Shown piece after piece: positions 21,697-36,062 of a stretch of DNA of 64,000 nucleotides. Below the pieces are notes generated by a model that searched no databases, was not told the DNA's origin, and saw only the letters and a list, made by a program, of their open reading frames with translations. A program made the position numbers and the translations under genes. The first letter of the stretch is position 1. The number at the start of each line of letters is the position of its first letter. This DNA is from a virus, in IMG/VR virus record IMGVR_UViG_3300023301_000008, positions 1 to 64,000 of that record; one strand, written 5' to 3'.

Positions 21697-21747
21697 CATA
21701 CTCCCCTACGCAGCGTGTGAAATCCGTGACGGTGTTTGGGGTTAAAT

Positions 21748-21831: not shown

Positions 21832-21835
21832 CACT

Positions 21836-21921
21836 GGAAAATAAATCTGGGGGGTCCCAGAACTAGTCTTGAAAACTAGCGGTACCTGAGAGGGTATGGG
21901 TTTCGAATACTCTGTTTTCCG
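21836..21921 (+). tRNA. tRNA-Ser(TGA)
   Basis: GGAAAAT/GTTTTCC acceptor, CTAGT CTTGAAA ACTAG anticodon arm, class II variable arm. Confidence 0.92.
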
Positions 21922-21925
21922 CTTT

Positions 21926-22009
21926 GGAGGGTAATTCAGTCTGGTGGCTGAGCATCCCTGCTAAGGATCGCGCACCGAAAGGTGTAGGTTTCGATTACTT
22001 TGCCCTCCG
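21926..22009 (+). tRNA. tRNA-Ser(GCT)
   Basis: GGAGGGT/GCCCTCC acceptor, ATCC CTGCTAA GGAT anticodon arm, variable arm GCACC-GAAA-GGTGT. Confidence 0.92.
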
Positions 22010-22012
22010 CGA

Positions 22013-22041
22013 TTGACTTGCAGGTTTCGATCTGTTAGACT
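22013..22041 (+). promoter_or_regulatory. Promoter upstream of tRNA-Lys
   Basis: TTGACT (22013-22018), 17 bases, TAGACT (22036-22041). Confidence 0.8.
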
Positions 22042-22060
22042 AGTTTTACCCGACCCTCAT

Positions 22061-22131
22061 GGGCCTATAGCTGAGGGGATTAGCATCTGGCTCTTAACCA
22101 GAGGACGCGGGTCCGATTCCCGCTGGGCCTA
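22061..22131 (+). tRNA. tRNA-Lys(CTT)
   Basis: GGGCCTA/TGGGCCT acceptor with wobbles, TCTGG CTCTTAA CCAGA anticodon arm, GCGGG TCCGATT CCCGC T arm. Confidence 0.9.
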
Positions 22132-22262
22132 CAATGAGAGATAAGCTTTCTGTTCTAGAGCAGGAAGTCTAAGACTCAGGAACACAGGAAACAACTTGTA
22201 GTCTAGACCTTCAGTTGCTCCTCCCGTACAGTCGGGCGAACCGGGTTTCGATAAGCCCACTT
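22132..22262 (+). other. Structured spacer between Lys tRNAs
   Basis: A CTTTCTG/CAGGAAG hairpin and a T-arm-like GGG TTTCGATAAG CCC are visible. No complete tRNA can be folded; possibly a decayed tRNA. Confidence 0.25.
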
Positions 22263-22334
22263 GGGTCTCTCGTATATCGGAAAATACTGTAGGCTTTTAC
22301 CCTTCAAAGCGGGGTTCGACTCCCCGGGGACCCA
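22263..22334 (+). tRNA. tRNA-Lys(TTT)
   Basis: GGGTCTC/GGGACCC acceptor, D stem GTAT/ATAC, loop CTTTTAC, CGGGG TTCGACT CCCCG T arm. Confidence 0.88.
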
Positions 22335-22378
22335 CTCGACCGTTCCGTTAGCCGGTCTCTAAAATGTTAGCGGGGTGC

Positions 22379-22449
22379 GTGGGTGTAGCTTAATGGTAAA
22401 GTACGACTCTTCCAAAGTTGTGATGCCGGTCCGATTCCGGTCACCCGCT
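22379..22449 (+). tRNA. tRNA-Gly(TCC)
   Basis: GTGGGTG/CACCCGC acceptor, CGACT CTTCCAA AGTTG anticodon arm, GCCGG TCCGATT CCGGT T arm. Confidence 0.9.
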
Positions 22450-22455
22450 CTCTAA

Positions 22456-22526
22456 CCCCCTGTAGCTCAGAGGAAGAGCAATCACCTTTAAGCGATGGGC
22501 CGAGATATCGTAATTCTCTGGGGGGA
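22456..22526 (+). tRNA. Irregular tRNA, best anticodon TAA
   Basis: CCCCCTG/TGGGGGG acceptor and GCTC/GAGC D stem are clear. The anticodon stem TCACC/GATGG has one mismatch around loop TTTAAGC, and the variable region is very short. Other registers are possible, so identity is unsure. Confidence 0.5.
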
Positions 22527-22543
22527 CGCATGAAACTTAGGTA

Positions 22544-22588
22544 GTCAGGCATCTAAGGAACTGCGCCCGCCGTGTGCGGTGGCCTGAC
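22544..22588 (+). ncRNA. Structured RNA element between tRNAs
   Basis: GTCAGGC (22544-22550) pairs perfectly with GCCTGAC (22582-22588), and an inner CCGC-CGTGT-GCGG hairpin is present. Not a tRNA; role unknown. Confidence 0.4.
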
Positions 22589-22590
22589 AT

Positions 22591-22661
22591 GTGGATATGG
22601 TGAAATGGTATCATCATAGCTTGCCAAGCTATGGGCGCGGGTTCGATTCCCGCTATCCGCT
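22591..22661 (+). tRNA. tRNA-Gly(GCC)
   Basis: GTGGATA/TATCCGC acceptor, ATAGC TTGCCAA GCTAT anticodon arm, GCGGG TTCGATT CCCGC T arm. Confidence 0.93.
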
Positions 22662-22689
22662 CGATAAGGGTACGCGACCCTTAGAAAGT

Positions 22690-22743
22690 CCTTTGATGCC
22701 TCTCGTTAAGTGGGAGAGGGTAGTTGGGAATCCAATTCAAAGG
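22690..22743 (+). ncRNA. Three-way-junction RNA element between tRNAs
   Basis: CCTTTGA/TCAAAGG closes a junction with two perfect hairpins, CCTCTC-9-GAGAGG and TTGG-GAAT-CCAA. It resembles a tRNA missing one arm. Function unknown. Confidence 0.45.
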
Positions 22744-22748
22744 CATTT

Positions 22749-22821
22749 GCCTCCTTAGCTCATCAGGTAGAGCGCCACTCTTGTAAAGTGGATGTGATCG
22801 GTTCGATTCCGGTAGGTGGCA
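22749..22821 (+). tRNA. tRNA-Thr(TGT)
   Basis: GCCTCCT/AGGTGGC acceptor with one T-T mismatch, CCACT CTTGTAA AGTGG anticodon arm, T arm ATCGG TTCGATT CCGGT. Confidence 0.9.
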
Positions 22822-22840
22822 CGGATACAGCATAGCTCAA

Positions 22841-22897
22841 GCAGGGCCCCAGTCGCGGTACCACGCGATCAGACGGTCCCCGAAGTGCTCCCCCTGC
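22841..22897 (+). ncRNA. Structured RNA element between Thr tRNAs
   Basis: GCAGGG (22841-22846) pairs with CCCTGC (22892-22897), and TCGCG-GTACCA-CGCGA is a perfect inner hairpin. Role unknown. Confidence 0.38.
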
Positions 22898-22966
22898 CGT
22901 TCGTGACAAATGGTTCTAGACGGCGGTAAGGGTAAGGAGAGGTTGGCTCTTCTCTGGTTTCCACCC

Positions 22967-23038
22967 GCCTCGTTAGCTCAGTGGTAGAGCACTTCTCTCG
23001 TAAAGAAGGGGTCGTCAGTTCAATCCCGACACGAGGCT
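22967..23038 (+). tRNA. tRNA-Thr(CGT)
   Basis: GCCTCGT/ACGAGGC acceptor, CTTCT CTCGTAA AGAAG anticodon arm. T stem GTCAG/CCGAC has one mismatch. Confidence 0.9.
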
Positions 23039-23087
23039 CAATAAAAGACCTAAGGGGGAAATGCCCTCGGAGGAGAAAGATAGCATC

Positions 23088-23225
23088 ATGGCAACACAAT
23101 CAGAAGCAGTAGCCTTGGCATTGGATACACTGGTCAAAATGGTGGAGGACAATGAAACGCCCTACGGGACGCGACTTGAAGCCATCAGAGAGATTTTCAG
23201 ATACGACATGAGTCTACGACAGTAG
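23088..23225 (+). CDS. Small helical protein, 45 aa
   Basis: Starts MATQSEAVALALDTLV. GGAGGAG lies about 12 bases before the ATG. Amphipathic helical composition, no known domain. A genuine small gene inserted in the tRNA array. Confidence 0.6.
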   Translation: MATQSEAVALALDTLVKMVEDNETPYGTRLEAIREIFRYDMSLRQ

Positions 23226-23257
23226 CTTGAAGAGGGGTGCGACTCTAACGCACAATT

Positions 23258-23329
23258 GCCGCCTTATATCAGTGGTAGATGGCGAACTTGGTAAGTTCGA
23301 GGCCGTGAGTTCAATCCTCACAGGCGGCA
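23258..23329 (+). tRNA. tRNA-Thr(GGT)
   Basis: GCCGCCT/AGGCGGC acceptor, CGAAC TTGGTAA GTTCG anticodon arm, GTGAG TTCAATC CTCAC T arm. Confidence 0.92.
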
Positions 23330-23347
23330 CGGCAGCAGACGAATATC

Positions 23348-23475
23348 GGGGTTGCACCTGAGAGTTTCGTCTAACCTAGGCATCGGATTTTTCAGTTCCG
23401 CGTGCGGTCTAGGGACACATGGGGGCTTATGGCTTTGTACTCCAAAAACTGACAGGCTGGCGAGGATGCAACTCC
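23348..23475 (+). ncRNA. Long-range paired RNA element between tRNAs
   Basis: GGGGTTGCA (23348-23356) pairs over nine bases with TGCAACTCC (23467-23475, one wobble). It encloses CCTAG/CTAGG and CCGC-GT-GCGG helices. No coding frame; candidate structured RNA. Confidence 0.45.
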
Positions 23476-23486
23476 GGACCAGCTAT

Positions 23487-23558
23487 GATCGTATAGCTCA
23501 GCGGTAGAGCTGCAGTGTGACACACTGCCTGTCGGGGGTTCAAATCCCTCTACGATCA
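23487..23558 (+). tRNA. tRNA-Val(GAC)
   Basis: GATCGTA/TACGATC acceptor, GCAGT GTGACAC ACTGC anticodon arm, GGGGG TTCAAAT CCCTC T arm. Confidence 0.92.
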
Positions 23559-23561
23559 CGC

Positions 23562-23590
23562 TTGACTAACAGACCCAAGTCTGGTAGACT
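23562..23590 (+). promoter_or_regulatory. Promoter upstream of tRNA-Val(TAC)
   Basis: TTGACT (23562-23567), 17 bases, TAGACT (23585-23590). Confidence 0.8.
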
Positions 23591-23668
23591 AAAGAAGTAG
23601 TGGTTGGGTTTCTTCAAGCTAACTAGGATTGTAACCTTCCGGCAGGTACCGCTGGAAACAACTCCCCC

Positions 23669-23737
23669 GGACCGGGGGCTGGTGTTCGATTGACTTTTAC
23701 ACGGTCGATTTGCTGAGTCCGATTCTCAGTCGGTCTA
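23669..23737 (+). tRNA. tRNA-Val(TAC) with reduced D arm
   Basis: GGACCGG/TCGGTCT acceptor, six-bp anticodon stem with loop TTTACAC, CTGAG TCCGATT CTCAG T arm. Only about 14 bases replace the D arm. An overlapping palindrome CCCCCGG-A-CCGGGGG could compete with folding. Confidence 0.6.
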
Positions 23738-23762
23738 CAAGGCTTGCATCCTACTGCTGTAT

Positions 23763-23833
23763 TCCTCTTTAGCTCCAAGGCGGAGCAAACGGCTGTTAAC
23801 CGTAAGGGTCAGGTTCGATTCCTGAAGGGGGAG
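23763..23833 (+). tRNA. tRNA-Asn(GTT)
   Basis: TCCTCTT/AGGGGGA acceptor, ACGG CTGTTAA CCGT anticodon arm, TCAGG TTCGATT CCTGA T arm. Confidence 0.92.
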
Positions 23834-23922
23834 CGACGAGGGTTTTTGCAAGTTTTACTCGGAGTGGAGGAAAAATGTGACGGATGCGGTCCAGAGTTCT
23901 AGAAATGGAGCCGTATCAACCT

Positions 23923-23995
23923 GTCTCCATAGCTCAGTGGATAGAGCGATTGACTACGCATCAATAGGCCGGGGGTTCAAATCCCTCTGGGGATA
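23923..23995 (+). tRNA. tRNA-Arg(ACG)
   Basis: GTCTCCA/TGGGGAT acceptor, TTGA CTACGCA TCAA anticodon arm, GGGGG TTCAAAT CCCTC T arm. A34 would need editing to inosine by a host TadA. The 89 bases before it hold nothing I recognise. Confidence 0.9.
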
Positions 23996-24000
23996 CGCAT

Positions 24001-24072
24001 GCCTCTATAACTCAACGGAAGAGTAGTAGCCTTCGAAGCTAAAAGTTGGGAGTTCGAATCTCTCTGGGGGCA
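24001..24072 (+). tRNA. tRNA-Arg(TCG)
   Basis: GCCTCTA/TGGGGGC acceptor, TAGC CTTCGAA GCTA anticodon arm, GGGAG TTCGAAT CTCTC T arm. Confidence 0.9.
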
Positions 24073-24126
24073 CTAGAGGGGGAGCGACCTCTAGGACACC
24101 TGGGTGTCCGGTAAAAACGCTCGTAT

Positions 24127-24197
24127 TCCCCGTTAGTGTAACGGTAACACGACTGACTCTGACTCAGTTATTCTTGGTTCGAATCCAGGATGGGGAG
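24127..24197 (+). tRNA. tRNA-Gln(CTG)
   Basis: TCCCCGT/ATGGGGA acceptor, ACTGA CTCTGAC TCAGT anticodon arm. Preceded by a perfect GGACAC-CTGG-GTGTCC hairpin in the spacer. Confidence 0.92.
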
Positions 24198-24214
24198 CAA
24201 CATTCAAGACACTA

Positions 24215-24243
24215 TTGACAATGACAGAAAGAACAGGTAGTCT
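24215..24243 (+). promoter_or_regulatory. Promoter of leaderless AAA ATPase gene
   Basis: TTGACA (24215-24220), 17 bases, TAGTCT (24238-24243), six bases to ATG 24250. Confidence 0.8.
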
Positions 24244-24249
24244 CAGAAC

Positions 24250-25416
24250 ATGACACATTTTATCAAACAAGGATCGCGCTACATGGTGGCCCCAGCTGAG
24301 GCTATCGATATGCGCAAGACCCTTCCTGAAGGGACGTACACGGTAAAGTTTGACGAAATGAGCGGATCGTTCTACCTAGAGGTCATCGAAGACTTCACAG
24401 TAGCCACCAAGATTTACGGCGACACCACCAAGCATGCCAACCGAATCCTCGAAACTTTCGCGGACCGCCCCAACTCTACCGGAGTCATGCTCTCGGGGGA
24501 GAAAGGCAGCGGCAAGACGCTCTTGGCCAAGGTCATTAGCGTCCGTGCTCGCAAGGCCGGTATCCCCACCATTGTCATCAACAACGCGTGGTGCGGTGAA
24601 GTATTCAACGGGTTCATTCAAATGATTGAACAGCCTACTGTCATCATCTTTGACGAGTTCGAGAAAGTGTACGACCGAAACGAGCAGGAAAAAATGCTCA
24701 CTCTGTTGGATGGTGTCTACCCCAGCAAGAAACTCTTTATCCTCACGTGCAACGACAAGTACCGCGTGAATACGCAGATGACCAACCGCCCCGGTCGAAT
24801 CTTTTACCGCATGGACTACGCTGGTCTGGAGAACTCATTCATCATGGAGTATTGCGCCGATAACCTTGAGAACAAGGGCCACACGGACTCCATCTGCAGG
24901 ATCGCCATGGCGTTCTCGGAGTTCAACTTTGACATACTCAAAGCTTTGATCGAAGAGATGAACCGCTACAAGGAAACTCCTCAACAGGCCATGGAAATGC
25001 TCAACGCCAAGCCTGAGTTCAGCGAGGGTGCTGATTACATGGTTCAGATCAAGGTCAACGATGTCAAGATTGATAAGGACAAGTTTGACGACTACTGCTG
25101 GAGCGGAAACCCGCTGGCTGGCACTGTACGAGTCGGCTACTACACCTCAGGCCCGGTCAGAAAAAAGCGCAGTCGCCCGGGCCGTGATACAAGCCCTGAG
25201 GCTCCGGTTTCCGCGAAGGAACTGATGGACAATCTCTTCGGTGACGATGACGTGGCTGAGGAGTCCGCATACACGTACCAGGACTTCACAAGCGCGGACC
25301 TCAAGGTGGTAGATTCTGCCGGAGGCAAGTTCAAGTTCGTGAACGGTGCTGGCTCCAAGCTCACCCTCACACGAATCCGTGCTCCGAAGTCCAACGTGGA
25401 CTACAGCGCGTTCTAG
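24250..25416 (+). CDS. AAA+ ATPase, 388 aa
   Basis: Single AAA+ module: Walker A GEKGSGKT (about residue 83), Walker B VIIFDEFEK (about 133), sensor-1 LTCND (about 165) and an arginine region NRPGR (about 178). The C-terminal 130 residues are unlike known partners and partly basic. Typical of large-phage ATPases of unknown client. Leaderless from its own promoter. Confidence 0.88.
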   Translation: MTHFIKQGSRYMVAPAEAIDMRKTLPEGTYTVKFDEMSGSFYLEVIEDFTVATKIYGDTTKHANRILETFADRPNSTGVMLSGEKGSGKTLLAKVISVRARKAGIPTIVINNAWCGEVFNGFIQMIEQPTVIIFDEFEKVYDRNEQEKMLTLLDGVYPSKKLFILTCNDKYRVNTQMTNRPGRIFYRMDYAGLENSFIMEYCADNLENKGHTDSICRIAMAFSEFNFDILKALIEEMNRYKETPQQAMEMLNAKPEFSEGADYMVQIKVNDVKIDKDKFDDYCWSGNPLAGTVRVGYYTSGPVRKKRSRPGRDTSPEAPVSAKELMDNLFGDDDVAEESAYTYQDFTSADLKVVDSAGGKFKFVNGAGSKLTLTRIRAPKSNVDYSAF

Positions 25417-25457
25417 TAGCAACCGGCGAGGTGCCCCCGGTAAAATTGGCACCGTAT

Positions 25458-25531
25458 TCCCCGGTAGCACAATTGGTAGTTGCGGCAGTCTTTGAAACTG
25501 TAGGTTGTTGGTCCGAATCCAACTCGGGGAG
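25458..25531 (+). tRNA. tRNA-Gln(TTG)
   Basis: TCCCCGG/TCGGGGA acceptor, GCAGT CTTTGAA ACTGT anticodon arm, GTTGG TCCGAAT CCAAC T arm. A GGTGCC/GGCACC hairpin precedes it. Confidence 0.92.
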
Positions 25532-25553
25532 CACTACTTATCCACTATTTTCT

Positions 25554-25624
25554 GCCTCTCTAGCTCAGCGGAAGAGCACATCTTTCCTAAAGATGTGGCC
25601 CCGGTTCGATTCCGGGGAGGGGCA
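25554..25624 (+). tRNA. tRNA-Arg(CCT)
   Basis: GCCTCTC/GAGGGGC acceptor, CATCT TTCCTAA AGATG anticodon arm, CCCGG TTCGATT CCGGG T arm. Confidence 0.92.
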
Positions 25625-25625
25625 C

Positions 25626-25654
25626 TTGCATTGAGTCTCCTCAGATGATAGACT
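25626..25654 (+). promoter_or_regulatory. Promoter of leaderless gene at 25661
   Basis: TTGCAT (25626-25631), 17 bases, TAGACT (25649-25654), six bases to ATG. Confidence 0.75.
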
Positions 25655-25660
25655 GCTCTA

Positions 25661-25906
25661 ATGACTGACATAGAAACAGAACACGAACCCTGGACCGTCA
25701 ACACCTTGATCGAAATTCTCGGGGAATATGACAAAGACGCGAAGATTAACGTCACCATGTACCCCTCTTGGAGAGGCATCTTCGTGATGATTCTTTGGAG
25801 AGTTCCGTACGTTGGTCGCTGGTCTCTCAAGCACAACCTTGATGTCCTTCCAAGCATGCCCATCACTGCGGTGTCCACCTCAGATAGTGGAGTGGATATT
25901 GGTTAA
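25661..25906 (+). CDS. Hypothetical protein, 81 aa
   Basis: Begins MTDIETEHEPWTV. The middle is hydrophobic and aromatic (RGIFVMILWRVPYVG) but too polar for a confident membrane span. Leaderless from a dedicated promoter. No family recognised. Confidence 0.65.
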   Translation: MTDIETEHEPWTVNTLIEILGEYDKDAKINVTMYPSWRGIFVMILWRVPYVGRWSLKHNLDVLPSMPITAVSTSDSGVDIG

Positions 25907-25910
25907 GGGC

Positions 25911-25939
25911 TTGCACTCCTAGTGCAGACCTGCTAGAAT
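25911..25939 (+). promoter_or_regulatory. Promoter of leaderless gene at 25946
   Basis: TTGCAC (25911-25916), 17 bases, TAGAAT (25934-25939), six bases to ATG. Confidence 0.75.
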
Positions 25940-25945
25940 CTTGAT

Positions 25946-26176
25946 ATGGCAAAAGACAGAGATGAATTCAGTGACGTAAAATCAGGCACGGCTGTTGCAG
26001 ACCTTATAGGTAGAAGGCATGGTCGTGTAGTGGTCGTAATCGGCAAAGGTATGTTCCGAATCCGCTGGGAGGACGACGAAGACGAGATTCTTCAGCGTCA
26101 CCAGCTCCTGGTTCGGTACACCACCGAGAGCCCCAAATTCATCCCAGGGCGCGTCAAGGTCTCAGAGAGGCCGTGA
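25946..26176 (+). CDS. Small basic beta-rich protein, 76 aa
   Basis: Residues 20-60 alternate strands with GRRHGRVVVVIG and FRIRWEDD, resembling a small KOW- or SH3-like barrel; this is only suggestive. Leaderless. A 12-codon frame (26190-26228) follows but has weak support. Confidence 0.65.
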   Translation: MAKDRDEFSDVKSGTAVADLIGRRHGRVVVVIGKGMFRIRWEDDEDEILQRHQLLVRYTTESPKFIPGRVKVSERP

Positions 26177-26283
26177 TAAGGTAGTCCTATGAGAAACGAA
26201 ATCTACACTGACTATGACACTATTTAGGTCATAGATTCGAAGCGGGAACCGACCCGCTATCTATGGCCGGAAATGAGGTCATT

Positions 26284-26928
26284 ATGTCGAGAACCGACAA
26301 AGATCGTCCCTACTGGGTCAGGCAGAACGATGACGGAACAAACACCGATCACGGCCACCTTAAGCTGGGCAAGACGATCTACAGAACGTATTACGTGTAT
26401 GACGAAAATGGCAAGGTCGTCTTCCACGAAGAGCCACAGTTCTATTCTGCAAGCCTCATTGTGCAGAACGTCAGTGGACTTACACGCTACTACACCATTT
26501 ACACCTTCTCTGAAGAGGCAGTCAATGAGGCGCGTGAGCTAGTCAAAAAGGGCAAACCATACGATCAGGTGCAAACCGGTGTGCGGCTCGTGGCTCAGAC
26601 AGAGAAGGTCGTGGCCGTGGTGCTCAAGGACTACTGCACCGAGGGTGAAAAGCTCACGGGCGGTGGCTACGGGCACTATGACGATCTGCCCTGCACCCCA
26701 GCAATGGCTCCAGGCGACTGGGGGTATTGCTACAGCTCTTTTAGCAGTAGCGGAAAGAAAAAGCGCGGATACTACGATATGCGTAATGGCTTGTCTCGAC
26801 GTACGTCCCGAGACTATCTGCGTGGTGTCGTCGATAGCTTTAACACCTACGGAGAGGCCTTCGATGACGATGACGAGCTGCCCCTGACCGCACAGCACCG
26901 TCACTCTATGTTGTGGGACCTTTACTAG
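26284..26928 (+). CDS. Hypothetical protein, 214 aa
   Basis: I prefer ATG 26284, with GAGGT just upstream; an in-frame ATG at 26263 is the alternative. Rich in Tyr and Gly, with a Cys/Gly-rich central part and an acidic patch (DDDDE) near the C-terminus. No domain recognised. Confidence 0.7.
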   Translation: MSRTDKDRPYWVRQNDDGTNTDHGHLKLGKTIYRTYYVYDENGKVVFHEEPQFYSASLIVQNVSGLTRYYTIYTFSEEAVNEARELVKKGKPYDQVQTGVRLVAQTEKVVAVVLKDYCTEGEKLTGGGYGHYDDLPCTPAMAPGDWGYCYSSFSSSGKKKRGYYDMRNGLSRRTSRDYLRGVVDSFNTYGEAFDDDDELPLTAQHRHSMLWDLY

Positions 26929-26935
26929 AAAAGGC

Positions 26936-26964
26936 TTGACGACAGGGTAAGAGCCTGATAGAGT
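26936..26964 (+). promoter_or_regulatory. Promoter of small gene and macro-domain gene
   Basis: TTGACG (26936-26941), 17 bases, TAGAGT (26959-26964), six bases to ATG 26971. Confidence 0.78.
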
Positions 26965-26970
26965 AAGAGT

Positions 26971-27078
26971 ATGATAACCAACGTATACCCTGTAGCACTG
27001 CCGGGAGCGGTACACGAGACCCTGATGTGGGCGAACGAAGTGGCCCACTTGCAGACGATCCTCTGCGTGAAAGGCTAA
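26971..27078 (+). CDS. Leaderless small protein, 35 aa
   Basis: Begins MITNVYPVALPGAVHE. Exact leaderless spacing. It ends three bases before the macro-domain start, so it may serve as a translated leader for that gene. No family known. Confidence 0.55.
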   Translation: MITNVYPVALPGAVHETLMWANEVAHLQTILCVKG

Positions 27079-27081
27079 ACC

Positions 27082-27552
27082 ATGGGAATGATTATCCACC
27101 AAACAGGAGACCTGTTCACAACTGACGCACGTGCTATTGGGCATGGTGTTAATGTCGATGGCATTATGGGCTCAGGCATTGCTTTGCAGTTCAAAGAACG
27201 CTTCCCCGATATGCACAATGAGTACAAAAAGCTCTGCAAGTCGGGTGAACTGGAGCCTGGAGGCCTTATGGTCTACGAACAGGCTCCGGGGCTGTATATT
27301 TACAACCTCGCGTCACAGGATCGCCCGGGGGCTAACGCCTCCTACGAATGGCTGTCTGAGAGCTTCAGACGTGCGCTGGGTGTTGCCGAGGCTGATGGGT
27401 TGAAAGAGATTGCTCTCCCACGGATTGGTTCTGGTATCGGTGGGCTCAATGAGCGTCAGGTTGAGGGCATGATTGCAGACATCATTGCCCCTACCCGGGT
27501 GAACGTAGAAATTTGGTCCCCCCCTCAAAAGGACATTTATGTGGTAATCTAG
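27082..27552 (+). CDS. Macro-domain ADP-ribose-binding protein, 156 aa
   Basis: Complete macro domain. GHGVNVDGIMGSGIA at residues 17-31 and LPRIGSGIGGL near 113 are the ADP-ribose loops. The pattern resembles the ALC1/TARG1/DarG-type macro domains, which remove ADP-ribose from proteins or DNA, or process ADP-ribose-1''-phosphate. In a phage it could reverse a host ADP-ribosylating defence (for example DarT) or recycle RNA-repair by-products. The substrate is not readable. Confidence 0.85.
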   Translation: MGMIIHQTGDLFTTDARAIGHGVNVDGIMGSGIALQFKERFPDMHNEYKKLCKSGELEPGGLMVYEQAPGLYIYNLASQDRPGANASYEWLSESFRRALGVAEADGLKEIALPRIGSGIGGLNERQVEGMIADIIAPTRVNVEIWSPPQKDIYVVI

Positions 27553-27559
27553 TAGTAAT

Positions 27560-27631
27560 GGTGGTGTGGCTGACTGGTTTAGGCGCTGCTCTGCAAAAGC
27601 AGATAAGGGAGTTCAATTCTCCCCATTACCT
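27560..27631 (+). tRNA. tRNA-Cys(GCA)
   Basis: GGTGGTG/CATTACC acceptor with two wobbles, CTGCT CTGCAAA AGCAG anticodon arm, GGGAG TTCAATT CTCCC T arm. Confidence 0.88.
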
Positions 27632-27635
27632 CCAC

Positions 27636-27709
27636 CTCTCCATAGCTCAGCGGATTAGAGCAGAAGGTTTCTACCCTTCGTGCCGGGGGTTCGACTCCCT
27701 CTGGAGAGA
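27636..27709 (+). tRNA. tRNA-Arg(TCT)
   Basis: CTCTCCA/TGGAGAG acceptor, GAAGG TTTCTAC CCTTC anticodon arm. Its 3' end GGAGAG lies 4 bases before the next ATG and could double as a ribosome site. Confidence 0.92.
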
Positions 27710-27710
27710 C

Positions 27711-27974
27711 ATGACAAACAAAAACGAAGACATGAAATTGAGCCTCCACCCGGACGCTTTGGATAGAAACTGCGGGTCCTTGGACGTGTCCACGGACTTT
27801 GATTCCTCTTGCCTCCCTACAACCTGGATTTGGCTGACCTTCAACACTCCGTATGAGCCGTGGTTCAGACTGACGTTTGCTGAGGCGGCGGAATTGCGAG
27901 ACCGACTCAGCGACGAGCTGGTTGTCTACGACACACTGACCGATGAGCAGAAGCGCATTGCCGATACGGAGTAG
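27711..27974 (+). CDS. Hypothetical protein, 87 aa
   Basis: Starts MTNKNEDMKLSLHPDALD, one base after the tRNA-Arg discriminator. The middle has WIWLTFNTPYEPWFRLTF, then a helical acidic end. No family recognised. Confidence 0.65.
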   Translation: MTNKNEDMKLSLHPDALDRNCGSLDVSTDFDSSCLPTTWIWLTFNTPYEPWFRLTFAEAAELRDRLSDELVVYDTLTDEQKRIADTE

Positions 27975-27989
27975 GTGCTATGATGTTGG

Positions 27990-28079
27990 ATGGCTTCCGC
28001 TTGCAAATGCCGTCACAGGTGCTCACAGCCGAATTGTGGTTGTGGGTCATCCTGTGATTATTGTTCCCATAAAGCCTAG
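27990..28079 (+). CDS. Cys-rich 29-aa protein, metallothionein-like
   Basis: Eight Cys and two His in 29 residues (CKCRHRC, CGCGSSCDYCSH). TATGAT with a TG extension ends five bases before the ATG, so it is probably leaderless. The stop codon overlaps the next promoter's -35. Metal binding is inferred from composition. Confidence 0.5.
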   Translation: MASACKCRHRCSQPNCGCGSSCDYCSHKA

Positions 28080-28105
28080 ACAAACGATATAGAGTATGCT
28101 AGAAT
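28077..28105 (+). promoter_or_regulatory. Promoter of Ile/Ala tRNA group
   Basis: TAGACA (28077-28082), 17 bases, TAGAAT (28100-28105), about 15 bases before tRNA-Ile. Confidence 0.7.
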
Positions 28106-28119
28106 GTAAATTCACGCAC

Positions 28120-28193
28120 TGGGGTTTAGCTCATCTGGTTAGAGCGCGTCACTGATAATGACGAGGCACGCAGTTCAAGTCTGCGAATCCCAA
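28120..28193 (+). tRNA. tRNA-Ile(GAT)
   Basis: TGGGGTT/AATCCCA acceptor, GTCA CTGATAA TGAC anticodon arm, CGCAG TTCAAGT CTGCG T arm. The only tRNA here followed directly by CCA (28194-28196). Confidence 0.92.
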
Positions 28194-28210
28194 CCAATAC
28201 AATTCAATAT

Positions 28211-28283
28211 GGGGGTCTAGCTCAATGGGTAGAGCGTCGGTTTTGCAAATCGAAGGCAGGGGGATCGTAGCCCCCGACCTCCA
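28211..28283 (+). tRNA. tRNA-Ala(TGC)
   Basis: GGGGGTC/GACCTCC acceptor, TCGGT TTTGCAA ATCGA anticodon arm. T loop is ATCGTAG instead of TTCGANT. Confidence 0.9.
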
Positions 28284-28288
28284 CTTAT

Positions 28289-28361
28289 GGGCCTTTAGCA
28301 CAATTGGTAGTGCACATTTCTGGCAGGAATGAGGTTGCGCGTTCGAGTCGCGTAGGGTCCA
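28289..28361 (+). tRNA. tRNA-Ala(GGC)
   Basis: GGGCCTT/AGGGTCC acceptor with wobbles, CATTT CTGGCAG GAATG anticodon arm, GCGCG TTCGAGT CGCGT T arm. Confidence 0.9.
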
Positions 28362-28400
28362 CTCCTATTTTACAGGTTTTCCTGCAATTTTAAGAAAGAC

Positions 28401-28429
28401 TTGCGCCCGTGAAAGTTTCGTGCTAGAGT
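28401..28429 (+). promoter_or_regulatory. Promoter of structured-RNA array and Ro operon
   Basis: TTGCGC (28401-28406), 17 bases, TAGAGT (28424-28429). The predicted start near 28436 lies just before the first RNA unit. Confidence 0.75.
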
Positions 28430-28462: not shown

Positions 28463-28555
28463 GGTGTACGAGCCGGATGACAGACCGTTATCAAATCCGA
28501 CTAATAATCAGACACGGCGAAAGCCAATCGGTCTTCAATAACATGCTCGTTCACC
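28463..28555 (+). ncRNA. Y-RNA-like unit 1
   Basis: Ends GGTGTACGAGC (28463-28473) and GCTCGTTCACC (28545-28555) pair at 10 of 11 positions. Inside, GTTAT (28487-28491) pairs with ATAAC (28538-28542), leaving an asymmetric loop CGGATGACAGACC opposite AT. The interior has a GGC-GAAA-GCC hairpin but no T arm. It shares the end/loop layout with the three following units. Confidence 0.6.
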
Positions 28556-28562
28556 ACAAGCT

Positions 28563-28670
28563 TAGTGGGCCGGATGTTTTCGGTTATCTCTCACATAGAA
28601 GCGAAGGCACGTTCGATTCGTGCGACGGTCTGGCTACCTAGTTACCCCGATGGCAATTACATGCCCACTA
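28563..28670 (+). ncRNA. Y-RNA-like unit 2 with T arm
   Basis: TAGTGGGC (28563-28570) pairs perfectly with GCCCACTA (28663-28670). The internal motif GCCGGA...CGGTTATC is opposite ATTAC-AT. It contains a T arm (GCACG TTCGATT CGTGC), then GACGGT with a weaker partner ACC..GTT, so the acceptor-like stem comes after the T arm. Confidence 0.6.
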
Positions 28671-28677
28671 TAACAAC

Positions 28678-28809
28678 TTGACGAGCCGGAGATTGTTCGG
28701 TTATCTATGGAACAGAAGAGGTTGTCGGTTCGAGTCCGGCAACACCCTTAGGGGTGTTTAGCTCAATCGGCAGAGCACTAAAACCCGAGTGTCATAACAT
28801 GTTCGTCAA
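28678..28809 (+). ncRNA. Y-RNA-like unit 3: permuted tRNA with tetraloop
   Basis: Ends TTGACGAGC (28678-28686) and GTTCGTCAA (28801-28809) pair over nine bases, and GTTAT (28700-28704) pairs with ATAAC (28794-28798). Inside: T arm GTCGG TTCGAGT CCGGC (28724-28740), AACACCC (28741-28747), loop TTAG, GGGTGTT (28752-28758), then D arm TAGCTCAATCGGCAGAGCA. So the acceptor stem is closed by a tetraloop and the ends sit at the anticodon position, as in YrlA-type Y RNA. Confidence 0.72.
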
Positions 28810-28819
28810 TAACCTTTCG

Positions 28820-28987
28820 GTGCGAGCCGAAGAGAATTGGTTACCCATGGAAGCCAGAGGTACGGTCGCTTGACGGCCCACTGCACTCTGGACTAGGCTG
28901 AGCTAGGCTCTCAGATATTGTGCGTAGAAACGCTCAAATAGCTGGAGGAAGTACCAGCACTTCCGATTTTCACACACATGTTCGCAC
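28820..28987 (+). ncRNA. Y-RNA-like unit 4
   Basis: GTGCGAGC (28820-28827) pairs with GTTCGCAC (28980-28987, one wobble). GAGCCGAA...GGTTACC matches the shared 5' motif, and CAC-AT-GTTCG the 3' motif. Inner CCAGAG/CTCTGG and GGTCG-CTTGA-CGGCC helices are visible. It ends 76 bases before the Ro gene start. Confidence 0.5.
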
Positions 28988-29063
28988 TACAACTTCGCAG
29001 CCAAAGATGTCTGCACAAATATGTTCGTCACAGGGCGAGCCGGAAAAGAAAGAAGACAAAGAA

Positions 29064-29627
29064 ATGACAGATTCACTTAAGACAGTACGCACCCGTGCCG
29101 CATCCCAGCTTGATCCTGCAAAAGCTCCTCAGACTGTTCGGACCCGCGAGGACCAGGTGCAGAACAACGCAGGCGGTTTTGTATTTTCCGTCAACGACAT
29201 GGAACGCGCCAAGCGCTTCCTCATTCTAGGTTCTGAGAAGAACTTCTACACTTCTGGGCAGAAGCTCTCGAAGGAGAACGCTGGTGTCATCACCAAGCTG
29301 GCTTCCGACGCTGAGGCTGGCATCCAGCTCGTGGACCTGATCACGGAGATTTCTGTGGCCGGTCGCGCTCCCAAGCAGAACCCTGCTCTCTTCGCTCTGG
29401 CTATTGCAGCTTCGAGTCCCGAAGAGTCGGTACGTTCGTATGCCCTCGACAAGTTGACTGATGTTGCGCGAACCGCTACACATTTGTTTATCTTCGTAGG
29501 GTATGTTGAACAGTTCCGTGGTTGGGGCCGTGCACTTCGTCGTGCTGTTGGAGGTTGGTATCTGTTCCACGAAGGACGTGGGTCTCTTGCATACCAAGTG
29601 ACAAAGTATCGTAGTCGTGTGGTATAA
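29064..29627 (+). CDS. Ro/TROVE protein, N-terminal part, 187 aa
   Basis: The first section of the TROVE HEAT-repeat ring of a Ro60-type RNA-binding protein: QNNAGGFVFSVND, RFLILGSEKNFY and ending LAYQVTKYRSR are family hallmarks. Ro rings bind Y RNA outside and misfolded RNA 3' ends in the hole. The frame stops where Ro proteins normally continue to the W(T/S)HRD motif; that continuation is the next gene. Start ATG 29064 suits the family N-terminus. A GCGAGCCGGA motif like those of the RNA units lies 28 bases upstream. Confidence 0.82.
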   Translation: MTDSLKTVRTRAASQLDPAKAPQTVRTREDQVQNNAGGFVFSVNDMERAKRFLILGSEKNFYTSGQKLSKENAGVITKLASDAEAGIQLVDLITEISVAGRAPKQNPALFALAIAASSPEESVRSYALDKLTDVARTATHLFIFVGYVEQFRGWGRALRRAVGGWYLFHEGRGSLAYQVTKYRSRVV

Positions 29628-29693
29628 TGGAATCTTTCTGATTCTCATTTTCGAAAATTATGCTCACTAGTTGTGAGCCGAAAGGAATAAAAA

Positions 29694-30764
29694 ATGACAA
29701 ACACTGCTTGGACACACCGTGATGTCTTACGACTATCACATCCCAACATTACGGACGATAATCTGGTGAATTGGATGACCGGCAAGGATTTTGATCTAGA
29801 TACCCTACCTGCTCAGACTAAGGGGTATGAGCTTGCCAAGAGCCCTGGCGCAGACGTGCCTGCACTCATTCGTGAGTACGGGCTGAGCTGGGAGATGATC
29901 CCGACTCAGGCACTCAACACGCCTGCCACGTGGGATGCACTGATGGACGGTAACGTTCCTCTCGGTGCGCTGATCCGTCAGCTCCCGCGTCTGACTCGTA
30001 TTGGGTGGCTTGCACCTATGAATGCGAACACGGCTTTGGTCGTGACTCGTCTCACCGATACAGTCCAGTTGGAGAAGGCTCGTATTCACCCGTTGAATGT
30101 TCTGTCCGCGATGAAGACATATTCCGCAGGCGGCGCGACGTACGGGTACAGCAGCTCTGCACGTAAGCCGCAGATTCCGTACACTCCAGTGCGTGAGATC
30201 ACAGATGCGTTGGATGCCGCGTTCTACTTGGCGTTCAAGTCAGTCACCCCCGCCAATAAGCGGACGATGGTTGGTGTGGACGTGTCAGGATCGATGGCCT
30301 CGTACATCGGTGACAGCCCGCTATCCGCAGCAGAAGTTGCTGCAGCTATGGCGCTCGTCACTGTGGCTACCGAGCCGATGGTTGTGGTCTATGGGTTCTC
30401 CCACCAGATCGCAGAACTGCCGATCAGCCCGCGTCAGCGTCTTGACGATGTTCTGGACCTTACGAGGGATCGTAACTTTGGTGGTACGGACGCAGCTCTT
30501 CTAGTGCGTACGGCATCTGCGAAGAACATTCTCGTGGATACGTTCATCGTGATCACTGACAACGACACCTGGGGTATGAGACACGTGTATGCCGAATTGG
30601 AGAAGTACCGCGCCAAGACTGGAATTTTGGCCAAGATGATCGTCTTGGCCTGCACCGCAAGCGAGTTCACTGTTGCGGACCCGAGGGATGATCTGAGCCT
30701 AGATATTGCGGGCATGGACTCTGCAGTGCCGCAACTGATTGCTGAGTTCAGTAGAGGGGATTAA
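29694..30764 (+). CDS. Ro/TROVE protein, C-terminal part with vWA domain, 356 aa
   Basis: Starts MTNTAWTHRDVLRLSHPN, which is the point where an intact Ro protein would follow the upstream gene. HEAT repeats run to about residue 190. A von Willebrand A domain follows with a full MIDAS: DVSGS (about 201), GTDA (about 264), ITDND (about 285). AAAGGA precedes the ATG. It is in the same frame as the upstream part, but two stop codons (29625 and 29688) separate them. Confidence 0.85.
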   Translation: MTNTAWTHRDVLRLSHPNITDDNLVNWMTGKDFDLDTLPAQTKGYELAKSPGADVPALIREYGLSWEMIPTQALNTPATWDALMDGNVPLGALIRQLPRLTRIGWLAPMNANTALVVTRLTDTVQLEKARIHPLNVLSAMKTYSAGGATYGYSSSARKPQIPYTPVREITDALDAAFYLAFKSVTPANKRTMVGVDVSGSMASYIGDSPLSAAEVAAAMALVTVATEPMVVVYGFSHQIAELPISPRQRLDDVLDLTRDRNFGGTDAALLVRTASAKNILVDTFIVITDNDTWGMRHVYAELEKYRAKTGILAKMIVLACTASEFTVADPRDDLSLDIAGMDSAVPQLIAEFSRGD

Positions 30765-30845: not shown

Positions 30846-30880
30846 GGGGCTCGACTTATTAATAGGTCGGGCCCCTTTAT
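30846..30880 (+). terminator. Rho-independent terminator of Ro operon
   Basis: GGGGCTCGAC (30846-30855) pairs with GTCGGGCCCC (30866-30875, one wobble), followed by TTTAT. Confidence 0.85.
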
Positions 30881-32829: not shown

Positions 32830-34338
32830 TCAACGTGTTTTCACATATCTAGATTTTCCGGCATCCCATACTCTGAACATGCCGTTGAGGGCTGCAAGCT
32901 CTTTTTCTGAGAGGCCTGGGATAGTTTTGAGGTCGGGGTCTCGATTGAATCTGTCTTTGCGGTAGTTGAACTTGTGCTCCCTACGGCGTGCCCCTCGTCT
33001 CAGGTATGTGTAGTCCGGAGGCAGAGTCTTATCTAGAACAAATCCTGTCTTCAAGTAGAGGTCTCCGGTGGAGACTCTAAGATCAGCGAAAGTGATCCAC
33101 TCATCCACCTCGTACAAGTTCTCTACGTATTTCATTAGTTTGGGCATCCCTCCCGGCACTCTGGCAGATGTGGCGTATCGTTCTAGATAGAATGCTCCAT
33201 TAAGTTTTGATTTTTGTTTGGCAACAAGAACAGCAACATCTTCTCCTTCCGGACTCACCAGCATTGCGTATACAGTGCCTCTTGCTGCCCCCTGTATGTG
33301 GTTGGCCTGTAGAAACGTGCTGGCGCGGTCATAGGACACAGACTCCATCGAACATTTTCTTGTGTTTATTTTAGAGTCTGTGCTCATGTTCAGCTTGTGT
33401 TTAATCATACGTTCTACTGCCTCTCTGTGGTATAGCCACTCGTCTTCCCAGATTTGAATAAGTTGGACACCTGAAGCTTCACACGCCCTTAGTCGATTTG
33501 CGTGGCTATGTCTGTCTTTATATTTTTCGCTGTGCCAGAAAATCCCATCTAACTCAAAAGCCTGTCTAGTTTCTGGAATATAGACATCCAACTCATAGGG
33601 GGGCACCACACCGGTAACACTATTTTGTGCGGTCGGCTGGAGTGTGTGGATAAATGAGTACAACTCCTGTTCAATCTTTGAGGTTCCAGTGGTATTGCAG
33701 TGTCTACATCCTTGCCCGGACGCACGGTGGTAGACTCCGGTGGACCAGACTCTGCTGCACATGTTACAGCGCCATTTGGCTCTGTACTTGGCAGACACCA
33801 TATAATCCTCGGGGTTCCCGTGATTGTCCTCGTGCCACTCTGAGGCCAGCTCTGGAAATTGATGTAGAAGAGAATTTTTACGAGATGGGTCAACCTTAAT
33901 TCCAGCGCAAAACGGACATCCGGATTTTGTTCGATTTCTTTGGTGAGGTGTGGCCTCCCAGGAGTGTTCTGGGTTGTTTTTGCAAAGCCACCACACTTTT
34001 TTTGAGTGGTTTGCAAGAATCTCAGTTGATCTTGTAGGGTTGGTCTTGGAGTACTCTTTATTAAGTTCTGGGTTAATGTCCGCCAATGAGTTGAACCCGG
34101 ATAGAACTTTTCGCATGGGTGTGGAGCAGTACGGGCATCCAAAGCCCCTGATGCGGTCTTTGGGGGTGGCCCTCCATGTGTGGTAGTGTCCACTCTCTGG
34201 GTCTGTATGGGACCACTCTAGGAGTTGGTGCGTACCGGGACGCACAGATGTGGTGTGGCTGTACTCTACTGCCTCACGAGCCAGGTCTGGGAACAGGTCG
34301 GCTACGCTTCCCCCAGGGAGAGGAATTTTTGATGTCAT
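32830..34338 (-). CDS. EDxHD (I-Bth0305I-like) homing endonuclease, 502 aa
   Basis: The N-terminal 220 residues hold several treble-clef zinc modules (CPYC, CPFC, CNMC, CRHC). The nuclease core ELDVYIPETRQAFELDGIFWHSE (about residues 250-272) has the Vsr-like EDxHD layout. The C-terminal 200 residues are shared with the protein at 34569-36029. TATACT ends six bases before the ATG. A selfish element beside essential helicase and nrd genes. Confidence 0.85.
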   Translation of the reverse strand: MTSKIPLPGGSVADLFPDLAREAVEYSHTTSVRPGTHQLLEWSHTDPESGHYHTWRATPKDRIRGFGCPYCSTPMRKVLSGFNSLADINPELNKEYSKTNPTRSTEILANHSKKVWWLCKNNPEHSWEATPHQRNRTKSGCPFCAGIKVDPSRKNSLLHQFPELASEWHEDNHGNPEDYMVSAKYRAKWRCNMCSRVWSTGVYHRASGQGCRHCNTTGTSKIEQELYSFIHTLQPTAQNSVTGVVPPYELDVYIPETRQAFELDGIFWHSEKYKDRHSHANRLRACEASGVQLIQIWEDEWLYHREAVERMIKHKLNMSTDSKINTRKCSMESVSYDRASTFLQANHIQGAARGTVYAMLVSPEGEDVAVLVAKQKSKLNGAFYLERYATSARVPGGMPKLMKYVENLYEVDEWITFADLRVSTGDLYLKTGFVLDKTLPPDYTYLRRGARRREHKFNYRKDRFNRDPDLKTIPGLSEKELAALNGMFRVWDAGKSRYVKTR

Positions 34339-34380: not shown

Positions 34381-34572
34381 CTACGCGTACAGGTGTGTCG
34401 TCTCACATGCGGAGCAGTAGTAGCCCACCAGATTTTCGCGCTTCATGTAGCCGCGTTTCTCCGTCTGGGTGATCGAGTTGAGGTTATTGAATGACCCCCC
34501 GCACGTCTCACACGTGTCGGGGGTTTCAAACAATACGACAGGTTTAATACTTTCTTGATCTTCATTGTTCAC
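34381..34572 (-). CDS. Small zinc-finger protein, 63 aa
   Basis: CETC (about residue 21) and CSAC (about 54) pairs form one likely zinc site. Its start overlaps the stop of the upstream endonuclease gene (ATGA). Function unknown. Confidence 0.7.
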   Translation of the reverse strand: MNNEDQESIKPVVLFETPDTCETCGGSFNNLNSITQTEKRGYMKRENLVGYYCSACETTHLYA

Positions 34573-36029
34573 TGTAGGTTTCCTCTTTCTGTTTTAGTGT
34601 ACCTTATTTTACCGGCATCCCATACTCTGTAGAGCCCATTCAAAGTAGCCAGCTCCCGCTCTGTTAGTTCGGGTTGGTAGAGTAGATCATTATCGAGTCT
34701 GAATCTCTTTTTACGGTAATTGAATTTGTGGACACGTGTCTTTCTATTGGATAGGTATGTGTAGTCTGGGGGAAGAATTTTGTCTACTTGGAATCCAGTT
34801 GATTCATATAACCCCCCATCTGTTGTGGCTAGGTCTGCAAATGTGACCCAAGTCTTAACGTCCTCCACTTTGGCTATGTGGGCCATCAGTTTAGTGAAGC
34901 CTCCCCGGACTAGACCCACCGTGGCGTACCTATCGATGATGTGCTCTCCTGATGAAGACACTCTCCGGGCCAGTACGGCCCTGAGGACCCCGTCTGAGGT
35001 TTTTAGTCCATAGTACCGTGCAACTCTCGGCGGCCCCTGGATGTGGTTTATCATTAAGAATCGTCTCGCTTCTAGAGCAGAGACTATCCCGGGCACACAC
35101 TTATTGGCAGATACCCTCTCTCCTGAGAAATTTCCAGTAAGCATTAGTATTCTGTTTTCTATGAGGGATCGGTTTCTGTCCCAATCATCGCTCCATATTT
35201 GAAGAAGTGTGATATTTTTGTCTCGGCACTCCTGGTACTTGTCGTGGTGGTATCCTCTAGGACGGGTGCCTTCTTTGTGCCACCACAGGCCGTTGAATTC
35301 AATTGCCAAGTTGTGATTTGGTATCCAGATGTCCAGCTCTTTGGTTCGCAGTTGGGTTCTGTCTCTGGGTTGGTGTTCAATGTTGTGGTGGGTGAGGAAG
35401 GCCGACAGTTCCTCCTCGGGGCGACTGATAGAGTGTGCACACGTTGGACATCCTGTAGATTGGGATGTTCTCATATCTGGAGACGCTAACCACGTGTGCT
35501 TTTTGTTGCATGACCAGTCTACTTTTTGGTTGTGCCCTGCTACAACATCTTGAGGAGTCATTCGGCTGTCTGCCCAGTCTTTGGCTACTTCTGGGTGAGA
35601 TGTGCCTAGATCGTTGATTCCCACAACAACCTGTCTGTTGTAACACACAGCGCATTTTTGATTTCCGGCCACTCTATTGTTTACGGTGGCCTCCCACTCA
35701 TGTCCGCAGGAGCCCAGCCACCATGCCTTGGTTCGGTGTCCTTTTCGGATAGTCTCTGGACCATAGAGATTCTTTGTGGGGTGCCATTCATCGGCTATGC
35801 TGGGGTTTGTGGTGAGTAGGTCATTGAATCCTGCCCAGGTGGCCTTATTGGCACAGTATGGACACTTTGAACCACGGACGCGCGGTCCGGGCCAGCTCTC
35901 CCACTCGTGGTTTAGGGCACACACCCACCAGTATTTTTTGTGTCCAAATGGGCTAATTGTGTTTAACGTGGCAGGCAGATTTTTAGTGGGGTGCCACTCT
36001 AACAATAGTGATTCGGGGATAATAACCAT
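34569..36029 (-). CDS. EDxHD homing endonuclease, second copy, 486 aa
   Basis: Four zinc-ribbon repeats (CPYC, CAVC, CPTC and W-rich spacers), then ELDIWIPNHNLAIEFNGLWWH (about residues 225-246) as nuclease core. The C-terminus parallels the protein at 32830 (RVWDAGK..RY.KT). I prefer ATG 36029, since TACCAT ends six bases before it; an in-frame ATG at 36053 is possible. Confidence 0.84.
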   Translation of the reverse strand: MVIIPESLLLEWHPTKNLPATLNTISPFGHKKYWWVCALNHEWESWPGPRVRGSKCPYCANKATWAGFNDLLTTNPSIADEWHPTKNLYGPETIRKGHRTKAWWLGSCGHEWEATVNNRVAGNQKCAVCYNRQVVVGINDLGTSHPEVAKDWADSRMTPQDVVAGHNQKVDWSCNKKHTWLASPDMRTSQSTGCPTCAHSISRPEEELSAFLTHHNIEHQPRDRTQLRTKELDIWIPNHNLAIEFNGLWWHKEGTRPRGYHHDKYQECRDKNITLLQIWSDDWDRNRSLIENRILMLTGNFSGERVSANKCVPGIVSALEARRFLMINHIQGPPRVARYYGLKTSDGVLRAVLARRVSSSGEHIIDRYATVGLVRGGFTKLMAHIAKVEDVKTWVTFADLATTDGGLYESTGFQVDKILPPDYTYLSNRKTRVHKFNYRKKRFRLDNDLLYQPELTERELATLNGLYRVWDAGKIRYTKTERGNLQ

Positions 36030-36062
36030 ATACTGATGGTACCATAAAGTCACCGGATGCGG

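What the first reader, a model, noticed from the sequence alone, without database searches (positions are those of the whole stretch)
28463..29063. Tandem array of Y-RNA-like elements directly upstream of a split Ro gene
Four successive units (28463-28555, 28563-28670, 28678-28809, 28820-28987) each have complementary ends whose sequences differ from unit to unit yet stay paired: 10/11, 8/8, 9/9 and 8/8 bp. That is compensatory variation within one locus. All share a 5' motif GCCGRA...GGTTATC opposite a 3' motif AYAAC-AT or similar. Unit 3 encloses a permuted tRNA module. The array lies between a strong promoter and a TROVE protein gene. Ro proteins of bacteria and of some mycobacteriophages are known to pair with YrlA-type Y RNAs. 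A tandem array of divergent units, instead of one Y RNA, would be new as far as I know.
Basis: partly seen in the sequence, partly recalled or inferred. Interest (0 to 1): 0.93.

Follow-up and report, generated by a model that had tools for sequence, protein, structure and literature searches.

The report
Phage Y-RNA array and split Ro
A phage carries four different Y-RNA genes in a row just before a Ro protein gene that is cut in two, and each half of Ro is preceded by a small hairpin that copies, inside-out, the part of a Y RNA that Ro is expected to grip, which suggests that the protein limits its own production to match its RNA partners.

Summary
A covariance model built only from other genomes recovers three of them in 64 kb (E 4e-8 to 3e-5). 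The end stems covary strongly. They are Y RNAs by anatomy; only unit 3 carries a full tRNA-mimic (Rfam YrlA 35 bits, below the 69-bit cut-off). The array is not unique: 96 of 157 Ro protein clusters (mostly viral) have at least one unit within 1.2 kb upstream of Ro, 41 have three or more, and the maximum is eight.

(1) Each Ro half has, over its ribosome-binding site, a hairpin AUGYUC-loop-GAGCCGRA that is the Y RNA's basal Ro-binding helix in circularly permuted order. Such leaders occur in 19/157 Ro clusters against 11/1297 control genes, including streptophages and Nocardia, with covariation. (2) The Ro split is unique among 418 loci, lies between the counterparts of Xenopus Ro K170/R174 and H187, and brings its own promoter-like site and leader hairpin. 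Best reading: autogenous control that matches Ro output to Y-RNA supply. Binding is untested.

The parts
28401..28429 (+). Promoter-like site for the array: TTGCGC-17-TAGAGT with extended -10 (TGC-TAGAGT)
   Evidence: read from sequence; not among the sites listed by the consensus scan
28463..28555 (+). Y unit 1: S1 stem 10/11 pairs, S2 stem 6, GNRA-type hairpin GGC-GAAA-GCC inside, no tRNA module
   Evidence: z -2.8; R1 E 1.9e-5
28563..28670 (+). Y unit 2: S1 8/8 pairs; T-arm-like hairpin at 28607-28623 (GCACG-TTCGATT-CGTGC)
   Evidence: R1 E 3.8e-8; weak match to the nematode sbRNA family ceN72 (E 3.6)
28678..28809 (+). Y unit 3: S1 9/9 pairs; permuted tRNA mimic (T-arm, acceptor-like stem, D-arm) at 28717-28779
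   Evidence: Rfam YrlA 35.1 bits, E 8.4e-6, gathering 69; R1 E 3.3e-5
28819..28988 (+). Y unit 4: S1 9 and S2 9 pairs; long multi-hairpin insert, no tRNA mimic recognised
   Evidence: z -2.5; not detected by R1
29021..29044 (+). Leader hairpin 1 (paired part 29023-29040): AU-GUUCGUC-ACAG-GGCGAGC-CGGA, a permuted copy of the Y basal helix, 23 nt before the Ro start codon
29064..29627 (+). Ro N-terminal half (187 aa, TROVE positions 1-158); ends ..KYRSRVV; stop codon overlaps the TATAAT box
29620..29628 (+). Extended -10 box TGGTATAAT at the end of the first Ro half; possible separate promoter for the second half
   Evidence: not listed by the consensus scan
29660..29682 (+). Leader hairpin 2 (paired part 29662-29678): AU-GCUCAC-UAGUU-GUGAGC-CGAA, directly before the SD and start of the second Ro half
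   Evidence: (z -2.6)
29694..30764 (+). Ro C-terminal half (356 aa, rest of TROVE plus Ro60 vWA domain with intact DVSGSM); begins MTNTAWTHRDVLRLSHP
30846..30875 (+). Intrinsic-terminator-like hairpin after the Ro operon

Best explanation
The locus is a Ro/Y-RNA cassette of an actinophage related to Microbacterium phages Cece and A3Wally. Shown by sequence: four divergent Y RNAs in tandem share one Ro-binding handle (basal stem S1, CGRA/ACAU internal loop, stem S2, GUUAYC), and each presents a different module: GNRA hairpin, T-arm, tRNA mimic, long multi-hairpin. They are followed by a Ro protein encoded as two polypeptides. Shown by comparison: a short hairpin lies over the ribosome-binding site of each half, and is the Y handle's S1 helix with its conserved edges in circularly permuted order; the same leader recurs in about 20 Ro clusters. 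Inferred: Ro binds the Y RNAs, and Ro that is not occupied by Y RNA binds the leaders and blocks translation, so Ro (and, here, each half of the ring) is made only as far as Y RNA is available. Inferred: the two halves assemble into one ring, and the Y units let the phage attach Ro to different partners or gate it in different ways (as YrlA does with PNPase in Deinococcus).
For: Array: (31 non-window units: 15 of 18 pairs with two-sided changes, 87% paired against 67% shuffled). Leader: 19/157 Ro clusters against 11/1297 control genes, p 3e-12, shuffles 0.95 +/- 1.0. Hairpins chosen by structure alone end in CCGR in 16/49 Ro leaders against 3/360 controls, p 1e-13. Leader stems covary (pair 5: GC, CG, AU, UA; pair 6 likewise), have the same G-Y-Y-C/G-R-R-C core and flanks AU/UU and CGRA as Y RNAs, and sit 9-23 nt before the start codon. 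Leader type (GAG, GGG) matches Y type in the same genome, 0.67 against 0.39 permuted, p 0.004, phylogeny not corrected. In the window the only two + strand hairpins of this form with six or more pairs that stand just before a start codon are those of the two Ro halves. Split: both halves keep normal identity to relatives (ORF1 61% to L324; ORF2 58%), key residues and Ro60 fold (ORF2 to 9nep E 3e-28, TMq 0.87). A Listeria phage with an Rsr-like gene shows three very abundant RNAs within 2 kb upstream of it (PMC12282133).
Against: No RNA or binding data for this phage. The leader lacks stem S2, which the Y units have, so it may be too small for Ro. Most Ro clusters (about 87%) have no leader that passes my test, so it is not a general requirement. 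The split has been seen in one assembly only; the one other contig from this virus (L005) begins inside ORF2 and does not cover the split. Unit 4 is not found by the held-out model.
Confidence: 0.62

Rival explanations
1. The Y array is real, but the leader hairpins are only remnants of array junctions: the 3' end of one Y unit next to the 5' end of the following, truncated one gives the same order of motifs, with no regulatory role.
For: Junctions in tandem arrays have exactly the order ACAUGYUC..GAGCCGRA, so the origin is plausible.
Against: Leaders occur in streptophages and in window ORF2 where no array lies next to them; stems are kept by covariation; distance to the start codon is confined to 9-23 nt.
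Confidence: 0.15
2. The leader is an ordinary 5' stabilising or RBS-masking hairpin, or an RNase cleavage site that frees the Y RNAs from the Ro mRNA; Ro does not recognise it.
For: It overlaps the ribosome-binding region; hairpins of any kind are equally frequent upstream of other genes (31% against 28%).
Against: The CCGR tail and UG head are specific to Ro leaders (16/49 against 3/360), match the Y handle and agree in type with the Y RNAs of the same genome.
Confidence: 0.2
3. The split Ro is a pseudogene or an assembly error and only the intact relatives are functional.
For: 1 of 418 loci; two other broken genes (L318, L267) look like a frameshift and an in-frame stop.
Against: Both frames keep normal identity and key residues; the break adds an extended -10, a leader hairpin, an SD and a start codon rather than just a shift.
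Confidence: 0.15
4. The units are decayed tRNA genes at the end of the phage's tRNA array, not Y RNAs.
For: They follow 33 tRNA genes, and units 2 and 3 contain tRNA arms.
Against: ARAGORN and Rfam tRNA find nothing there; the shared part is the non-tRNA handle, which covaries and is linked to Ro across phages.
Confidence: 0.02

Closest known systems
YrlA, bacterial Y RNA (Rfam RF02553; Salmonella, mycobacteria and phages)
   Same: Closed basal stem, permuted T/D-arm tRNA mimic (unit 3), position next to a Ro gene
   Different: 35 bits here against a gathering score of 69; the other three units have no full tRNA mimic; four units rather than one or two
Deinococcus Y RNA with Rsr and PNPase (RYPER)
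   Same: Ro60-family protein with Y RNAs encoded beside it; the Y RNA tethers and gates Ro
   Different: No PNPase gene found among the window proteins scanned; more units with different modules; split Ro
Salmonella rsr-yrlBA-rtcBA RNA repair operon
   Same: More than one Y RNA beside a Ro gene (two)
   Different: No Rtc genes among the window proteins scanned; array of four; leader hairpins not described there in what I could read
Nematode sbRNAs and vertebrate Y RNA clusters
   Same: Several divergent Y-type RNAs per genome with a shared Ro-binding end stem and GGUUAUC
   Different: Separate genes with their own promoters, not one array before the Ro gene (general knowledge)
Autogenous control by RNA mimicry (ribosomal protein leaders such as S15 or L20; from general knowledge)
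   Same: An mRNA leader imitates the protein's normal RNA target next to the ribosome-binding site
   Different: Here the target would be a Y RNA and the copy is circularly permuted; regulation not shown

Membership tests
Y RNA (broad) | 5' and 3' ends pair into a basal stem kept by compensatory change | tested here: met
Y RNA (broad) | Conserved Ro-binding region at the end stem (CGRA / GGUUAUC opposite ACAU) | tested here: met
   conserved across 31 other units and found in window units 1-3 by R1; unit 4 has it by eye and scanner only
Y RNA (broad) | Linkage to a Ro60-family gene | tested here: met
   TROVE and Ro60 vWA downstream; units sense-oriented upstream of Ro in 96/157 clusters, antisense control 2/157
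Y RNA (broad) | Stable RNA bound by Ro | not testable with these tools
   needs RNA-seq and pull-down
YrlA (Rfam RF02553) | Reaches the family's gathering score | tested here: not met
   unit 3: 35.1 bits against 69; units 1, 2, 4 no YrlA match
YrlA (Rfam RF02553) | Permuted tRNA-like domain with T- and D-arm | tested here: met
   unit 3 only; unit 2 has a T-arm only
Ro60/Rsr protein | TROVE HEAT ring plus vWA domain with MIDAS motif | tested here: met
   spread over two frames; ORF2 model matches Ro60 structures, E 3e-28; ORF1 model only moderate, pLDDT 73
Autogenous translational operator | Leader imitates the protein's RNA target over the RBS | tested here: met
Autogenous translational operator | Protein binds the leader and represses translation | not testable with these tools
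   no binding or expression assay

The most novel reading that the evidence does not exclude
Ro proteins of phages and some bacteria control their own synthesis through leader hairpins that are circularly permuted copies of the Y RNA's Ro-binding helix, so that Y RNA dose sets the Ro level; in this phage the device has been duplicated to keep a naturally two-piece Ro in step, and the Y array is a set of interchangeable adaptors.
Probability: 0.5. Interest if true: 0.82.

Novelty: new variant of a known kind. Interest (0 to 1): 0.72.

Why it matters
Why some genomes keep several different Y RNAs, and how Ro and Y RNA amounts are matched, are, as far as I know, open. The locus points to a concrete answer: a shared handle with varied modules, and a handle copy in the Ro mRNA itself. 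It supplies many Y RNAs that the Rfam YrlA model does not report at its cut-off, a model that finds them (R1), and a natural two-chain Ro cut at the predicted Y-RNA-binding face for structural work. The leader hypothesis can be tested with a two-plasmid reporter.

Tried and rejected
A DNA pattern search for GAGCCGAAG-N8-GGTTATC in viral contigs was unspecific and was not used further. Rfam at gathering score finds no Y RNA in the window or in 18 related loci. The sigma-70 consensus scan does not list the array promoter or the TATAAT before ORF2, so both rest on reading the sequence. Folding the whole 631-nt region is uninformative (z -1.1), and unit 2 alone folds no better than shuffles (z -1.1). 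Hairpins as such are not enriched before Ro (p 0.4); only the signature is. The idea that the split is common was rejected: 410 of 418 loci have one full-length Ro frame.

Full report
What was checked. The window is a linear IMG/VR record of 64,366 bases, with 33 tRNA genes between 15.3 and 28.4 kb. Its nearest named relatives at this locus are the ~190-kb Microbacterium phages A3Wally, Cece, Pumpernickel, Zooman and Big4.

The array. A scanner that demands a basal stem S1, the CCGR edge, a second stem S2 before TTAYC and a YG edge on the 3' side finds 28463-28555, 28563-28670, 28678-28809 and 28819-28988 and nothing else on the + strand (one hit on the - strand). Applied to 157 Ro clusters (70% amino-acid linkage) it finds at least one unit within 1.2 kb upstream in 96, at least two in 69, at least three in 41, and eight in L338; the antisense control gives 2 of 157. 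By source, 85 of 137 viral clusters and 20 of 25 clusters from cellular genomes (which may include prophages) have a unit. Units are either tRNA mimics of about 135 nt or simple ones of about 79 nt, and most arrays with two or more units mix them.

That these are real structured RNAs rests on three tests. (i) With unit ends chosen by sequence anchors only, outer stem pairs form 3.55 of 5 times against 2.65 +/- 0.04 when 3' ends are swapped within a genome. (ii) On 31 simple units from other genomes, 15 of 18 pairs show two-sided changes, 87% of cells pair against 67% in shuffles, and sliding the partner by one column drops this to 45% or less; these units were selected partly by pairing, so (i) is the cleaner test. 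(iii) Model R1 from those 31 units finds window units 2, 1 and 3 at E 3.8e-8, 1.9e-5 and 3.3e-5 and nothing else in 64 kb. R1 also finds units inside or beside the tRNA arrays of Cece, A3Wally, Zooman, Mareelih, Sixama and GMA2, and upstream of Ro in streptophages.

Relation to known Y RNAs. Unit 3 matches the YrlA core at 35.1 bits (gathering 69); relatives score 28 to 42 bits, and none of 18 loci gives a YrlA hit at gathering. The nematode sbRNA model, a Y-RNA homologue, also matches Cashline (31.8 bits). So these are Y RNAs by anatomy and linkage, but three of the four are not YrlA. In the window each unit carries a different module: GGC-GAAA-GCC hairpin (unit 1), T-arm-like hairpin GCACG-TTCGATT-CGTGC (unit 2), T- plus D-arm (unit 3), long multi-hairpin insert (unit 4).

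Leader hairpins. The idea was noted from the window and a few Microbacterium phages and then tested on further loci. A hairpin with UG or CG at its 5' edge and C-CGR at its 3' edge, 8-26 nt before the start codon, is found in 19 of 157 Ro clusters, in 11 of 1,297 other genes of the same loci, and in 0.95 +/- 1.0 shuffled leader sets. Turning the test round, hairpins chosen by structure alone are no commoner before Ro than before other genes, but 16 of 49 end in CCGR before Ro against 3 of 360 elsewhere (p 1e-13). Twenty-one leaders (20 clusters plus the second window leader) share the core G-Y-Y-C/G-R-R-C, vary by compensation at pairs 5 to 7, and carry mostly AU or UU and CGAA or CGGA at the edges. 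This is the Y RNA basal helix with its conserved edges, in the order 3' strand-loop-5' strand. It occurs in Microbacterium phages, streptophages, large IMG/VR phages and Ro genes in Nocardia genomes. In A3Wally a promoter-like TTGACA-17-TAAGCT would place it at the very 5' end of the mRNA (sequence).

The split. Intact relatives read ..KYRQR-EGWTHRDL..; here frame 1 ends KYRSRVV and frame 2 begins MTNTAWTHRDV. By alignment to Xenopus Ro (1yvp) the break falls between the counterparts of K170/R174 and H187. H187S is a Ro60 mutant reported to lack Y RNA binding (PMC11277228); that K170 and R174 also contact RNA is from memory. The inserted stretch carries TGGTATAAT overlapping the stop of frame 1, then the second leader hairpin, an SD and a start codon. 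Both halves keep normal identity to the closest relative L324 (61% and 58%), whose Ro is intact and preceded by an array (five units by the scanner) and a variant leader. ORF2 is predicted as a Ro60 fold (pLDDT 87.5; best match human Ro60 9nep, E 3e-28); ORF1 is moderate (pLDDT 73). No other of 418 loci has such a split.

Mechanism. Most likely the array transcript gives four Y RNAs that share the handle, and Ro binds them. When Ro exceeds Y RNA it binds the leader copies of the handle and shuts off its own translation; in this phage both halves carry the copy, so they stay in step. Binding and repression are inferred. Weak points: the leader has no S2; most Ro clusters lack a leader that passes the test; the concordance of leader and Y type (p 0.004) is not corrected for descent; scanner thresholds were set after looking at examples; the split rests on one assembly.

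Literature. Bacterial Y RNAs tether Rsr to PNPase and mimic tRNA (PMC8394870); Salmonella has an rsr-yrlBA operon (PMC7790460); a ROT/TROVE protein in some jumbo phages is noted without arrays in the passage read (PMC7824862). A Listeria phage shows three very abundant RNAs within 2 kb upstream of an Rsr-like gene, which its authors suggest may be Y RNAs (PMC12282133). A Ro60 dimer of Thermus phage phiLo has been solved (9l5y). I found nothing on arrays of this size or on leader mimicry in the held library, but the central papers are not held.

Noticed in passing
window 15107-28362: At least 33 tRNA genes (Rfam adds 15107-15188, 15411-15484 and 17410-17482) interleaved with HNH and endonuclease VII genes; a CCA-adding/polyA-polymerase-like gene lies at 57798-58610.
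   Followed up: partly
window 37264-40635 (-): Ribonucleotide reductase large chain interrupted by an intein with Hint and LAGLIDADG domains.
   Followed up: no
window 32833-34338 and 34572-36053 (-): Two neighbouring paralogues of about 500 aa with three DUF4379 treble-clef repeats; the first has a weak REase-like domain; possibly homing-type endonucleases near the Ro locus.
   Followed up: no
L002 2614-2804; L015 4855-5490; L023 4996-5642; L013 4796-5471: Y-RNA units embedded inside phage tRNA arrays, between tRNA genes, suggesting shared processing.
   Followed up: partly
L338 1412-2448: Array of eight divergent Y units directly upstream of Ro, the largest seen.
   Followed up: partly
L267 about 3666; L318 about 2484-3274: Two further broken Ro genes: an in-frame stop in an actinomycete MAG and an apparent frameshift; not the window's kind of split.
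   Followed up: partly
window 27082-27552: Macro-domain protein just upstream of the last tRNAs and the array.
   Followed up: no
L247, L266, L237, L292: Ro genes in Nocardia genomes carry covarying versions of the leader hairpin, so it is not confined to free phages.
   Followed up: partly
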